Shown one piece after another: positions 6,535 through 61,042 of a stretch of DNA of 64,000 nt (its first letter is position 1; each line of letters starts with the position of its first letter). This DNA comes from Capniomyces stellatus (Eukaryota > Kickxellomycota > Harpellomycetes > Harpellales > Legeriomycetaceae): positions 1-64,000 of the forward strand of contig LUVW01000032.1 of NCBI GenBank assembly GCA_001661515.1. Reading direction: 5' to 3'. Both the position numbers and the translations under genes were made by a program. The notes under the pieces are model-generated. The model did no database searches. It was not told the DNA's origin and saw only the letters and a list, made by a program, of their open reading frames with translations.

Positions 6535-6915
6535 AACCTTGGTTGTAGATGTATACGCAAAAAGAAATTTTATATTATATTATATTTTATTTTTATTTTT
6601 ATTTTTATTTTTATTTTTATTTTTATTATATTTTATTTTATTCATATGGTTTATTTGGAAATAGAATTAATAAAACAAAGCATACAAATATTAAACAATA
6701 CTTGAGGATACTGCTATTTTGATGTGATAAATGACACTACTTGTTCAACACAACTTTGATCTAATTAGATGGTCCAAAAATTTAACAATAATGAATTTAT
6801 CGACTAAATAACAAATAAAATAAAAAGAAATCAAATAGTAATAAGAACAAGAATAAGAATAAGAATAGAGATATTAATTCAGAAATAAAAAAAGAAAGAT
6901 TAATAGAAAAAAAAT
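6535..6915. other. convergent intergenic spacer with ATTTTT microsatellite
   Basis: This is the 3' flank of both SLX9 (+) and DEF1 (-). It contains an imperfect (ATTTTT)n tract at about 6584-6640 and little else. Confidence 0.5.
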
Positions 6916-10433: not shown

Positions 10434-13400
10434 CTTTCTTATTCTCTTTACTTATTTGTTTGTTTGTTTTTTTTATTCCTTTTCTTGCTTGCTTTTTTCC
10501 TATCTCTTATTCTTTATTTATACTATCTCCTTACTTTGTAAATTTTTTACTAGTTTTAACCTTTATTACAGAAATATCTGGCTATATTTTTTTTAATGTT
10601 TATTCTCTTATATCCTTTGTTTTTTTTTTACGCTATTAGTATATTCTTTTTCAGCTTCAACAATAATATAAAATTGTGTTTTTTTTTTCATTGAAAAAAA
10701 AATTTTTAGTACCCAATTTATTTGCTTTTTCCTTTTCTTTTTCCATTTCCCTCTTATAAACCAACTTCAATATCATTATCTCTTTTTTTTATTTCTCCAT
10801 TTCAATTGTTTTGCACATTTATTTCATCTTTTTCTAATTTCATTCCATTTCAACCATTTCTTTTTTTTTTTTTTTCTTNNNNNTTTTTTTTTTTTTTTTT
10901 TTTCTTGTCTCTTTTATTTATTTTTGTTTTATTCATTTCTAACTTTGCATTAATTTTCATCTTATTATCTACTTTACCGTGTTTTTTTCTTTCTTTTTAT
11001 TCACTTTACCTTTTTTTTAATTGATTTTGGCTCGTAATAACCCCCCCCCATTAGCTAATCTTTCGTTTCTTTATGATTTCCTTTTCCCCTTCGCTTTTTA
11101 AACTAATCATCGCTCTAAGCAAATCATTTCTCTCCATTCCTCCGTTCTGCTCTTTGTTTTTTTTTAATGTTGTTTTTGTTCATCATTTTATACTGCTATT
11201 GATAGATTAATGCTTAATTAATTTTTGTTTGTTATCATCTATTTGCTCTAATCACCCATATATATCATCCATCTAATTATTTTGCTTTAGTTCCTACCAC
11301 CCACTGCTGAAATAACGTACACTCACTCAACTCACTCATACCTTCCCTTTTTTTTCATACTCACCATGCCCTTTTCTTTTCCAACTCTATATCCCCGATA
11401 CTACTCATTATACTCTTCATCTAGTTGTTGTATCGGCATCAATAGTACCACCCTTGCTTCTCTCTCCCCCCCCCCCATCTTCCACCTTTTTTGTTATACT
11501 TTTTCATCTTGCCTTTTGGCTGGTATTTTGAATTTACTATTACCTAGCATGACATCACTACTCTCCCCTTCACCATCTCACCCCTTCCCCCCTTACTTCC
11601 ATCAACATAACCAAGTTCATTTAACGTCATTAATTCGACTCATAACCTTAATATCTTTTCATCAAAACCTTTCATCAAAATCTCGTTCACCCAAACTTTG
11701 TTTTCCAGCCACGGAATATTACCTACGCCATTATATACAGTTTACTTGGCGCGCTGTTGCGATACAACACAATGCACTCTGAATACGGGTCGCCAAACAT
11801 ACACGTATTGTGTCTTTGACTCTTTGATTACACTTCCATGTACCACCACACTACTCAACACTCTTTCACTGTACTTTCCATAACACCCTCACTATTTCCT
11901 TTCCCCCCTCTTTTTCTTAAAAAATACAAAAAAAAACATTAACAATTCAATATCATGTTATTTTATTACACCATCATCCTTACCAATATTTACAATTCAC
12001 CTCAACCAGCCAATTAATCAATGGCCTCAATTATGGCCCGATAAAATCAAAACAGCGTTAAAAACAACATCATAAAAAAAAGCACCACGAGTTTGTCTTG
12101 TAAATTCTGCAAATTAAAATCATCGTTTCCTTGGTTAACCATAACTATCATGGCCAAAACCTGAACTATAATCAACGTTCAATACATCTCAATAGCTCTA
12201 ATCTGCCTCTCGTCTTTAGGTCCAATGGAGTAAGGGTTGCTATATTTAACGTACCTTTTTTTTTTCTTCTTCATCTTTTCAAGATTGTACAACAATTCTT
12301 TTTTGCCAACTATTTTTTTTCTTCAAATTAAATATAAAAAAAAACTCAGATTTAGCCGACCTTTTCAGATAAAAATATCTACACTGATAATCCATTTTTA
12401 TTTGTTGGACAATAGTTGAGCAGAAATTAAAAACCCCCTACCAATTGTTCTTGTTCTAAAGTAAATGTTTTTTGTTTTTTGTTTTTTTAGTTAGATTTTA
12501 TAGAACAAAAAAGAATCAGACTGAAAATAAAGAAAAAAAGAAGCTGAGGTTTAGAAAAGACGAAGGAAAAAGAAGAAAAAAAAAGGAGAATTATAGAAGC
12601 GCGTTGATAATCGGGTTATCTTTTACAAGTTTCAGTCATTCTCAAAGTAAACAATCATAGCCAATAGTTTCCAATCAACCGTCAAAAACAGCAAAAAAGG
12701 GAATAAAAAAGTAGAGAAAGAACACGTGTATTATTTGCCAAGTCCCTGATTTTACCACCCAGCTTGCCGTTTTAGTTTGCACAATTTTACACGGAACAGC
12801 GAATTATTGGTGCTTGTTTTACTATACTGTTTTGTTCTGTGGTTACTAAACGATAGAGCAAAACCTGGTCCATGTATTTCTCTTTTTATCTACGAAACAT
12901 TACATTGCTACAAGTGGTTGGTTAAACTGGTTTCTTGGTTGGTTTAAAATTAAGCAAAGGTCCGATTTTTGGTCTCAACTATCACCGAACAACCAAATCC
13001 AACAAAAAAAAAACACATATCTATCATATATACCTCTCACCAAGTCCACAGCTCTGTTCAAAACCAGTGCTATGCATTGCAGCAAAAGCAAAAGCAAAAG
13101 CATTAAAGCGCTACCAAGTGTAATCCACACACTAAATTAACTGTACAGTCCAAAATCAACATATACTTCATTACCCAGCATTTTTATACTCGAAAGGGAA
13201 AAACTATAGAGAAAATAAATGAGTCTACTCAAACCCAATAACAAGTGGTAGGACAAAGCAGCCATATACACACAGCCATAGAATTAGCATTGGAAAGGCA
13301 ACCTGCTTATCAGCAATAATAGTTGTGGGGGGTTCAGCTATACAATCGATATGACTTAATTCAACCAAAAACTTGGATTAATAAGGCAAAATATCAAAAA

Positions 13401-27671: not shown

Positions 27672-28294
27672 TTTCGATTTTGTTTATTTCAGTCCGATTT
27701 TGTATTGCAAACTCCGATATATATATATCAGCGTTGTTTATTGCTTGTAACTGGCCTGTAGCGTGCTGTCCAATTGGTACTGTTGATATACTGTATTTTA
27801 CCGCTTGATAAAAAAAAACAATCAGAATTCTTGTTTATCAGTCAAGAAATCACGTTATTCGATTCACCTATTGTTTTGATCAATTATTTTCATCTTTACC
27901 CTATTAGTCTGATCAATTTAATGTTGTTGCCAATTTCAACAATAAAAAAAAAAAGAAATGTTGTTGCCAACTTTTCTGAAAGTGAGGTTTTGGAGTAAAA
28001 ACTATAACAGTTTTCATTAATTACACAACAATTAATTGGCCTAAATTGGATATTTTTGGTGTGTTTATTTTCCAAATTATTCGCCTTGTTCAATTTTTTT
28101 TCCCTTTTACTTACCAACAATAATAGCTACAATTATTAGAAAAGAAACCAAAGCTTTGGGCTTTTCTTTGTTTCCTTTACGACCATTTTGATTTCTATAA
28201 TAGATTTACATTTCACCAAGTTTGTTTTCAGCAAACCTTTGCTTTTCTTCTTTAAATTGATGCTATCTTTAAATTCTAACTCTCTGTAATTAAA
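27672..28294. promoter_or_regulatory. divergent promoter region MSH3 / DIB1
   Basis: About 620 bases separate the MSH3 and DIB1 start codons. The region includes a TATATATATAT tract at about 27719-27728 on the MSH3 side and the duplicated-flank micro-insertion at 27920-27970. Confidence 0.45.
27920..27970 (+). repeat. 14-bp direct repeats flanking a TTTCAACAAT-poly(A) insert
   Basis: Copy 1 of AATGTTGTTGCCAA is at 27920-27933 and an identical copy 2 is at 27957-27970. Between them are 23 bases: TTTCAACAAT followed by a run of A and a final GA. The layout is target-site duplication, tiny insert, poly(A), target-site duplication. Confidence 0.85.
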
Positions 28295-31935: not shown

Positions 31936-31976
31936 CTAACTTGCTCAAAAAGAAAAAAAAACTAACTTGCTCAAAA
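31936..31976 (+). repeat. direct repeats flanking a short poly(A) insert
   Basis: CTAACTTGCTCAAAA occurs at 31936-31950 and again at 31962-31976, each preceded by an A run. Only AG and an A run lie between them. Confidence 0.7.
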
Positions 31977-32892: not shown

Positions 32893-32970
32893 CACTGCTG
32901 TTTTTATTTATATTTTTTTATAGAAATACTGCTGTTTTTTTGTTTTTTTTATTGAAACTGCTGCTTTTTT
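32893..32970 (-). repeat. triple ACTGCTG direct repeat with two poly(T)-type inserts
   Basis: Three copies of ACTGCTGTTTTT-like sequence lie at about 32894-32905, 32928-32941 and 32957-32970. The second gap (32942-32956) is a T run followed by ATTGAA, and the first gap (32906-32927) is a T run ending ATAGAAAT. Read on the minus strand, these are TTCAAT-poly(A) and TTTCTAT-poly(A) inserts between A-led direct repeats. Confidence 0.75.
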
Positions 32971-50198: not shown

Positions 50199-51031
50199 TT
50201 TTTTTTTTTTCTTTTCCTTTTCTTTTTCCTTTTCCTTTTCCTCTCTGCCCTTTATACCCTATATCTAACCCTTTATCGCTAAAGCTTATCCGGATCAAAA
50301 AAAAATTATGCTTGCAGTATCTTCACTTTTTTTTTTGGCTACTCTGGGTATACTCAACTATTGTTTTTTTTTCTTGGCCTACAATTTATTGAATAGAATG
50401 GTTTATTTAAATTTGTATGTTTATCCTACTACAAAAATAACACCCACCCAACATATATGATCAAGCGCTTGTGGATTAGGTGGTAGCAAACACTTCGGCT
50501 TTTTGTTGGTGAAATCTGATTTTTGGATCAGCTTTACTCGGTCTTGTTAAATTTAATTCAGTAATGAAGAGTTGGTGAATGAAAAATAAAACTTGAATCT
50601 CTTGCTTTATCTTTGAAAATGATAAACTTGATCAAGTAGTTTTACCAATTTTATTCAGCGTTGATTTGCACCAATCACACCCAATAATCACCTTTTATTG
50701 TTCAATTTCCCAAAAGTCCTCGAAAGTTGGATTCTTTTTTTTTTATTGAAATAAAAAGTTGGATTCTTTATTATTGAGTTTTGAATGCTGAATTTAAAGA
50801 ATATTGATTTGTTGATTCTATTTATGTATTCAAAAAAAAAAGCTGTTGGAAACTGCATCCACAAATTTCAAAACAAACAGAATTACCCACCTTTTCTTTA
50901 TAAAATAAAATATATTAAAGTCATTTTGTGGAATCTGTTCTGCTTTATTCTACATTGCTCGAAATTAAAATACCACTACACTAAAAGAATACTAACACAG
51001 TTGCATGAGATAGTAGCAGAAACAACCAAAC
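50199..51031. promoter_or_regulatory. divergent promoter region MSK1 / POL32
   Basis: About 830 bases separate the two starts. The MSK1 leader is a CTTTTC-type pyrimidine repeat on the plus strand (50201-50243), that is, purine-rich in the transcript. A duplicated-flank micro-insertion lies at 50723-50769. Confidence 0.45.
50723..50769 (-). repeat. 15-bp direct repeats flanking a TTTCAAT-poly(A) insert
   Basis: AAAGTTGGATTCTTT at 50723-50737 is repeated exactly at 50755-50769. Between them are 17 bases: seven T then ATTGAAATAA. On the minus strand this is a TTTCAAT core followed by an A run, between direct repeats that begin with A. Confidence 0.9.
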
Positions 51032-60994: not shown

Positions 60995-61042
60995 GAATTT
61001 GTTAATTTTCTTTTTTTTTATTGAAAGAATTTGTTAATTTTC
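60995..61042 (-). repeat. 16-bp direct repeats flanking a TTTCAAT-poly(A) insert
   Basis: GAATTTGTTAATTTTC at 60995-61010 is repeated exactly at 61027-61042. The 16 bases between are nine T followed by ATTGAAA, that is TTTCAAT plus an A run on the minus strand. Confidence 0.9.

What the first reader, a model, noticed from the sequence alone, without database searches (positions are those of the whole stretch)
27920..27970. Micro-insertion TTTCAACAAT-poly(A) between perfect 14-bp direct repeats (one of a recurring family)
The sequence shows a 14-bp direct repeat around a 23-base insert that starts TTTCAA and ends in an A run. Sites at 32.9, 50.7 and 61.0 kb have the same core (TTTCAAT-A run) inside unrelated direct repeats of 13-16 bp. 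Shared insert plus unrelated duplicated flanks is the mark of insertion, not slippage. Target-primed reverse transcription by LINE-type elements makes duplications of this length, with poly(A) and heavy 5' truncation; AATAAA at the junction would fit an element's 3' end. A mobile unit of about 7 bases plus poly(A) would be an extreme case, and I know of no such described class.
Basis: partly seen in the sequence, partly recalled or inferred. Interest (0 to 1): 0.75.

Follow-up and report, generated by a model that had tools for sequence, protein, structure and literature searches.

The report
Eight-base stubs of aborted LINE insertions
A fungal genome carries hundreds of tiny insertions, only about eight bases plus a run of As, that are the extreme tail ends of a jumping gene whose copying apparently stopped at the same place almost every time, which records a normally invisible early step of how such genes jump.

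Summary
The window lies in a 24.5 Mb genome, probably of a Kickxellomycotina fungus. TTTCAAT-A7 occurs 456 times there, the reversed word 6 times. Of the first 100 sites in contig order, 57 sit in flanking direct repeats, against 4-5% when flanks are re-paired.

The insert is not an independent mobile unit. It is the exact 3' end of an L1-type LINE: longer copies end in ...ATTAATAAATTTCAAT(A)n, the longest with LINE C-terminal coding sequence. The window's variant TTTCAACAAT(A)n is the 3' end of one such copy.

What is unusual is the truncation. 89 of 100 sites lack the LINE sequence upstream, 56 of them in repeats. In 50 of those 56 the base before TTTCAAT is A, as in the LINE; over the 89, the next base is at background. 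Sites one or two bases shorter rarely have repeats. Target-primed reverse transcription therefore seems to stop about 8 nt past the poly(A) in roughly nine insertions of ten.

The favoured cause, a template anchored at a predicted 3' stem-loop, is inferred, and the family-1 stem is weak.

The parts
27920..27933 (+). 5' copy of the target-site duplication AATGTTGTTGCCAA
   Evidence: exact match to 27957-27970
27934..27943 (+). insert body TTTCAACAAT, the 3' end of a LINE (variant end)
   Evidence: same end...ATTAATAAATTTCAACAAT(A)n, in LINE copy L103 at C18:206298
27944..27954 (+). poly(A) tail A11, followed by GA at 27955-27956
27957..27970 (+). 3' copy of the target-site duplication
60995..61042 (-). 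micro-insertion TTTCAAT-A9 (61011-61026) in perfect 16-bp repeats (60995-61010 and 61027-61042)
50723..50769 (-). micro-insertion TTATTTCAAT-A7 (50738-50754) in perfect 15-bp repeats (50723-50737 and 50755-50769); the A-run continues into the repeat
32929..32970 (-). micro-insertion TTTCAAT-A8 (32943-32957) in imperfect repeats (12 of 13; 32929-32941 and 32958-32970)

Best explanation
Each site is a near-total 5' truncation of an L1-type LINE. An L1-like endonuclease nicks an A-rich target, the nick primes reverse transcription on the LINE RNA's poly(A) tail, and synthesis stops after the tail plus about 7-8 nucleotides (10-11 in the TTTCAACAAT variant). The stub is joined to the other end of the break, sometimes with 1-3 bases that do not match the LINE, leaving a target-site duplication. 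Shown here: identity with the LINE 3' end, the A tail, the duplications, the A-rich target and the sharp stop position. Inferred: the nicking and priming steps, which follow from what is known of L1-type LINEs, and that the stop happens because the RNA is held at a short stem-loop just 5' of the last bases, so only the free tail is copied before release, in the way RNA polymerases make abortive products before promoter escape. I put about 0.92 on the LINE/TPRT identity and about 0.4-0.45 on the stem-loop anchor as the cause of the stop.
For: 456 v 6 sites genome-wide. Flanking repeats in 57 of 100 v 4-5% of re-paired controls. Unique repeat length median 13 nt; an A-run of 3 or more directly 5' of the unique part in 31 of 56 v 10% background. 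Longer copies with the same 3' end: 39 v 0; in the 30 fetched, similarity to two reference copies extends 17 to 520 nt, 520 being the length compared; the longest carry LINE C-terminal coding sequence. A related LINE in the same genome has an APE-type endonuclease, RT and zf-RVT, with human LINE-1 ORF2p as best solved match, E 5.7e-61. Stop position: base -1 is A (the LINE base) in 50 of 56 repeat-flanked short sites (75 of all 89), base -2 at background in the 89. Shorter ends: VTTCAATA7 2 of 15 with repeats (both really ACTTCAAT ends), VTCAATA7 2 of 20 (control 4.7%), other CAACAATA7 1 of 20. A second end, ACTTCAAT(A)n, matches the 3' end of LINE family 2 (L105) and has repeats at 8 of 25 sites v 3.5%; the family-2 base before it, C, is present in only 3 of the 25. 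Predicted stem-loops end 6 nt (family 1) and 8 nt (family 2) before the poly(A).
Against: The family-1 stem is weak (-3.1 kcal/mol, all A-U): 3, 30 and 60 of 500 shuffles fold as well in the three copies tested; only the family-2 stem (-7.2, 1 of 500) is clearly better than chance in its single copy. Family 3 and the L023 LINE show no such stem. In family 1 the stop lies 2 nt inside the stem, in family 2 at its foot. A fixed 8-nt stop fits both; only the TTTCAACAAT variant argues against it, and of its four micro-sites the window's has a clear repeat, L172's is modest (score 10; with three sites the re-paired control is uninformative, 21%), and L173 and L174 have none. ACTTCAAT sites may be mutated family-1 ends rather than family 2, and bodies shorter than 8 were not searched for in that class. 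43 of 100 sites have no recognisable repeat at the threshold, 33 of them short sites. No RT match lies beside the family-1 copies, so the active source is not seen.
Confidence: 0.85

Rival explanations
1. Fixed-length abort: the RT simply falls off after about 7-8 nt past the tail, whatever the template, when it changes from initiation to elongation; RNA structure plays no part.
For: Family 1 (ATTTCAAT) and the ACTTCAAT class both fit 8-nt bodies; the family-1 stem is weak.
Against: The TTTCAACAAT variant keeps the same start and so is 10-11 nt long (window; L172), and of 20 fetched of the 25 other CAACAATA7 sites only 1 has a repeat, at the threshold. Few sites.
Confidence: 0.3
2. A protein on the AAUAAA hexamer (AATAAA|TTTCAAT), such as cleavage/polyadenylation factor, blocks the RT or protects a short 3' RNA fragment.
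For: In family 1 the stub starts at the hexamer's 3' edge or last A, and the TTTCAACAAT variant does too.
Against: If ACTTCAAT sites come from family 2 (AATAAATTCACTTCAAT), the stop is 3 nt 3' of the hexamer edge.
Confidence: 0.12
3. The template is a separate short RNA, for example a cleaved 3' fragment AUUUCAAU(A)n or an unseen SINE sharing the tail, copied to its 5' end.
For: The sharp end and the 1-3 extra bases at some junctions resemble RTs running off a template end (the comparison is from general knowledge).
Against: No second shared body: among the 60-nt left flanks of the 89 short sites only 4 of 3,916 pairs share 14-17 bases, and none of these forms a family. The 11 longer sites were picked out by their match to the LINE end, so they are not independent evidence. 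A cleaved LINE fragment is not excluded. No RNA data.
Confidence: 0.12
4. Ordinary random 5' truncation; the stubs are merely the short end of a broad distribution.
For: Longer copies do show a broad spread.
Against: 89 of 100 sites have no LINE sequence upstream (fewer than 15 of 22 bases alike), and bodies of 5-6 nt are almost absent among repeat-flanked sites: a sharp peak, not a tail.
Confidence: 0.05
5. Chance, replication slippage or local tandem duplication in AT-rich DNA.
For: The genome is AT-rich and A-runs are common.
Against: 456 v 6, 57 of 100 v 4-5%, unrelated repeats around the same core.
Confidence: 0.01

Closest known systems
5'-truncated L1-clade LINE copies made by target-primed reverse transcription
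   Same: poly(A) end, target-site duplications, A-rich nick site, 3' end of a LINE
   Different: truncation at essentially one nucleotide, leaving 7-11 bases of element in about nine of ten sites sampled
Ylli, the L1-type LINE of Yarrowia lipolytica (PMC5014426, passages read)
   Same: fungal L1-type LINE with many short 3' fragments
   Different: that paper reports 104 fragments of 30 bp to 1 kb and no identified target-site duplications. I recall, without having seen it in a call, that the original description noted many copies of about 134 bp
Poly(T)-only insertion among L1-endonuclease-dependent insertions in human NF1 (PMC3219598, passages read)
   Same: an insertion said to be possibly a severely truncated Alu, L1 or processed pseudogene
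   Different: one disease insertion of tail only; no constant element bases and no genome-wide class
Stringent-type LINEs whose protein binds a 3' stem-loop, zebrafish ZfL2 and eel UnaL2 (PMC4176376, passages including the start of the abstract)
   Same: a stem-loop near the 3' end, proposed here as an anchor
   Different: L2-clade elements with demonstrated binding; here only a predicted fold, weak in family 1
3'UTR stem-loops of human L1 and Alu (PMC5135761, passages read)
   Same: stem-loop suggested to matter for RT recognition in an L1 element
   Different: no link to a stop position in the passages read
Early switch or abortive retrotransposition in human LINE-1 (PMC7617806 and PMC2912911, passages read)
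   Same: an early switch to second-strand synthesis, or end-joining of an abortive intermediate, is proposed to alter or truncate insertions
   Different: no preferred stop position is reported in the passages read

Membership tests
L1-type LINE insertion by target-primed reverse transcription | 3' poly(A) tail | tested here: met
   present at every site by construction of the search (A7 or more); also seen in the motif-free scan of A-runs
L1-type LINE insertion by target-primed reverse transcription | target-site duplication of about 7-20 bp | tested here: met
   57 of 100 v 4-5% control; unique part median 13 nt, range 8-26
L1-type LINE insertion by target-primed reverse transcription | A-rich endonuclease target (TTTT/A type) | tested here: met
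   A-run of 3 or more at the nick in 31 of 56 v 10% background; no T preference beyond it can be claimed
L1-type LINE insertion by target-primed reverse transcription | insert is the 3' end of a LINE | tested here: met
   longer copies with the same end plus LINE C-terminal coding sequence
L1-type LINE insertion by target-primed reverse transcription | endonuclease and RT encoded by the source element | tested here: inconclusive
   found in the related family-2 LINE at C35; no RVT_1 match lies next to family-1 copies
SINE | own body with RNA polymerase III promoter or small-RNA origin | tested here: not met
   bodies are 7-11 nt and the left flanks of the 89 short sites share no body
Stringent-type LINE (3' stem-loop recognition) | stem-loop at the 3' end | tested here: inconclusive
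   predicted in families 1 and 2, clearly better than shuffles only in 2; absent in family 3
Stringent-type LINE (3' stem-loop recognition) | ORF2 protein binds the stem-loop | not testable with these tools
   needs protein

The most novel reading that the evidence does not exclude
The genome preserves abortive-initiation products of target-primed reverse transcription: the RT copies only the free tail of an RNA that stays anchored at its 3' stem-loop, about nine of ten attempts fail to escape, and host repair fixes the failed attempts as 8-base stubs with target-site duplications.
Probability: 0.4. Interest if true: 0.82.

Novelty: new variant of a known kind. Interest (0 to 1): 0.68.

Why it matters
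Very short LINE insertions are normally unrecognisable. Here a constant end and intact duplications make hundreds of them readable, so the position and frequency of early RT failure can be measured from a genome. If failed attempts outnumber longer copies about nine to one, LINEs mutate genomes far more often than their recognisable copies suggest, and part of the many A-runs in AT-rich genomes may be such scars. It also makes a specific question testable: what lets a LINE reverse transcriptase pass from initiation to elongation.

Tried and rejected
Rejected: (1) a self-standing 7-base mobile unit, because longer LINE copies share the end. (2) The L023-type LINE as source: its end is ...CCACATAAATAAATAAA. 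(3) The RVT_1 places as direct 3'-end donors: ten stretches downstream of 11 of the 34 places showed no TTTCAAT with A7; the other 23 were not followed downstream in that way. (4) An AAUAAA-edge stop as the only cause: it does not fit the ACTTCAAT class if that class is family 2. (5) A T preference at the base 5' of the nick: it seemed present, but the repeat-extension rule largely excludes A there and T is then at its background share.

Led nowhere: TTCAAT and TCAAT counts were above the reversed control (130 v 12, 250 v 67), but the fetched sites (15 of 130 and 20 of 250) hardly ever had repeats, so that excess is unexplained. No related genome is held, so no empty-site test was possible. 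Paper searches (open-licence PMC only, listings plus passages of nine papers) gave no description of LINE stubs of this kind; that is not proof of absence.

Rows dropped: in the stop-position count, 11 of 100 sites were set aside as longer copies (15 or more of 22 bases alike to the LINE upstream) and the 33 short sites with a repeat score under 9 were left out of the 56. The one further repeat-flanked site, L066, is a longer copy. In one search, L008 was dropped because L059 holds the same stretch; other overlapping loci were kept. In one search only the 30 of 39 long copies that were fetched were measured.

Full report
What is in the window. The reported site is exact: 14-bp repeats at 27920-27933 and 27957-27970 around TTTCAACAAT-A11-GA. 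Three more sites on the minus strand (32943, 50738 and 61011) have the core TTTCAAT-A(n) within unrelated repeats of 13, 15 and 16 bp; the 32.9-kb pair differs at one base. The word TTTCAATA7 is expected 0.04 times in the window and occurs three times.

Genome-wide. The window lies in a 24.5 Mb, 59-contig assembly. A lysyl-tRNA synthetase encoded in the window is closest to proteins of Furculomyces, Smittium and Mycoemilia at 48-51% identity; no closer protein is among the 120 listed. Furculomyces and Mycoemilia are Kickxellomycotina, so the host is most likely a fungus of that group without a close relative in that database. TTTCAATA7 occurs 456 times and the reversed word 6 times. I fetched the first 100 listed places, in contig order and without selection. 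With ungapped repeat scoring, 57 of 100 reach a score of 9 or more; when left flanks are compared with right flanks of other sites the share is 3.9% or 4.9% (more shuffles). At a score of 12 it is 41 of 100 against 0.3-0.6%. Seven of the short sites have perfect repeats of 12 or more, as do three of the window's four, so some insertions are probably young.

Source of the insert. ATTAATAAATTTCAATAAA occurs 39 times, its reverse never. Upstream the longest copies share a 3'UTR of about 110 nt and then a coding end. A search with the 114-residue coding end gave 48 matches, including one, at 40% identity, in a reading frame of 986 residues at C35. That related LINE (family 2) has an APE-type endonuclease, a reverse transcriptase and a zf-RVT domain and is closest to human LINE-1 ORF2p among solved structures. 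So the element is an L1-type LINE. No RT match lies beside the family-1 copies themselves. One copy, at C18:206298, ends in TTTCAACAAT(A)n, the variant in the window; with A7 that end occurs only five times in the genome.

Where copying stops. Of the 100 sites, 11 extend into the LINE sequence and 89 do not; 56 of the 89 are repeat-flanked and 33 are not at this threshold. Since only about 6 of 456 sites are expected by the reversed-word control, the 33 are probably older insertions with worn repeats, but that is inference. In the longer copies similarity to two reference copies extends from 17 to 520 nt, the length compared (30 of 39 measured). Among the 56, the base before TTTCAAT is A in 50; over all 89, that base is A in 75 and the base before it is at background (46% A against 44%). 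The body is thus ATTTCAAT, or TTTCAAT plus one A. Between repeat and TTTCAAT lie no extra bases in 13 of 56, one in 18 and two in 8; 19 of 56 junctions carry 1-3 bases that do not match the LINE, and 4 carry 7 or more and may be false repeats. Shorter ends: 2 of 15 VTTCAATA7 sites have repeats, both of them ACTTCAAT ends, and 2 of 20 VTCAATA7 sites, where the control allows about one. The target is A-rich at the nick (31 of 56 with three or more As, background 10%), and the unique repeat length has a median of 13 nt. The left flanks of the 89 short sites share no further body (4 of 3,916 pairs with 14-17 bases alike).

Other ends. ACTTCAAT(A)6 occurs 43 times (reverse once); 8 of the 25 sites fetched have repeats, control 3.5%. 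It matches the 3' end of LINE family 2 (L105), though a mutated family-1 end cannot be excluded; the next family-2 base, C, precedes it in 3 of 25. Locus L209 seems to hold two stubs stacked in one target (read by eye, the scoring did not pick it up).

Why it stops. RNA folding puts a 9-bp stem in family 1 ending 6 nt before the tail and a 9-bp stem in family 2 ending 8 nt before it. Family-2 stubs would begin at the foot, family-1 stubs two weak pairs inside it. The TTTCAACAAT variant keeps the same start with a longer tail, which speaks against a fixed length, but of its four micro-sites only the window's has a clear repeat, L172's is modest and two have none. The family-1 stem is weak (-3.1 kcal/mol; 3, 30 and 60 of 500 shuffles as good in three copies) and is kept in 23 of 30 long copies; family 2 is -7.2 (1 of 500); families 3 and L023 have no such stem. 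I therefore hold the anchor model as the best single mechanism but at less than even odds.

Known work. A stem-loop near the 3' end is needed for stringent-type LINEs (PMC4176376, passages) and has been suggested for human L1 and Alu (PMC5135761, passages). A premature switch to second-strand synthesis has been proposed to explain 5' truncation of human LINE-1 (PMC7617806, passages). Extra nucleotides (about 40%) and microhomology (about 50%) occur at 5' junctions of zebrafish ZfL2-2, where end-joining factors limit insert length (PMC2666801, passages). A poly(T)-only human insertion was read as possibly a severely truncated retroelement (PMC3219598, passages). The Yarrowia LINE has many short fragments but no identified duplications (PMC5014426, passages). 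None of the passages read describes a genome-wide class of stubs with one stop position; the searches are listed under Tried and rejected.

Verdict. The sharp, near-universal early stop is the new part. Function for the host is neither shown nor claimed.

Noticed in passing
window 31936-31976, + strand: A second kind of scar: a perfect 15-bp repeat CTAACTTGCTCAAAA (23 bp if the shared As are counted) around AG-A9, i.e. a tail with almost no body; L062 + near 2641 shows A8 alone between near-identical 21-mers.
   Followed up: partly
L001, + strand, near 2680-2720: Insert GACATCAATGAT-A7 in a perfect 12-bp repeat: a short insert with another core, perhaps the 3' end of another RNA moved in trans.
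   Followed up: no
window 32894-32941: A further copy of ACTGCTGTTTTT next to the 32.9-kb site, as if two insertions were stacked in one target.
   Followed up: no
window 6600-6778: Degenerate piece (about 72-75% identity) of the 3' end of a second, abundant LINE family (L023 type, copies about 93-98% alike) whose tail is AAATA-rich rather than pure poly(A).
   Followed up: partly
L209: Two stubs in one target, read by eye: ACTTCAAT-A6, then the repeated target, then ATTTCAATAA.
   Followed up: no
L155 and L166: Two stubs in contigs C5 and C6 sit in targets that both contain GCTAGAATTA.
   Followed up: no
G000 C8, C10, C13, C15, C35, C36, C54, C58, C59: Several RVT_1 matches lie within some 15 kb of contig ends on these contigs, and some share repeated pieces; possibly subtelomeric LTR or other elements.
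   Followed up: no
genome-wide: TCAATA7 not preceded by T is nearly four times commoner than its reverse (250 v 67) although 20 fetched sites hardly ever have repeats; unexplained.
   Followed up: partly
window 10879-10883: Run of five N inside the window.
   Followed up: no
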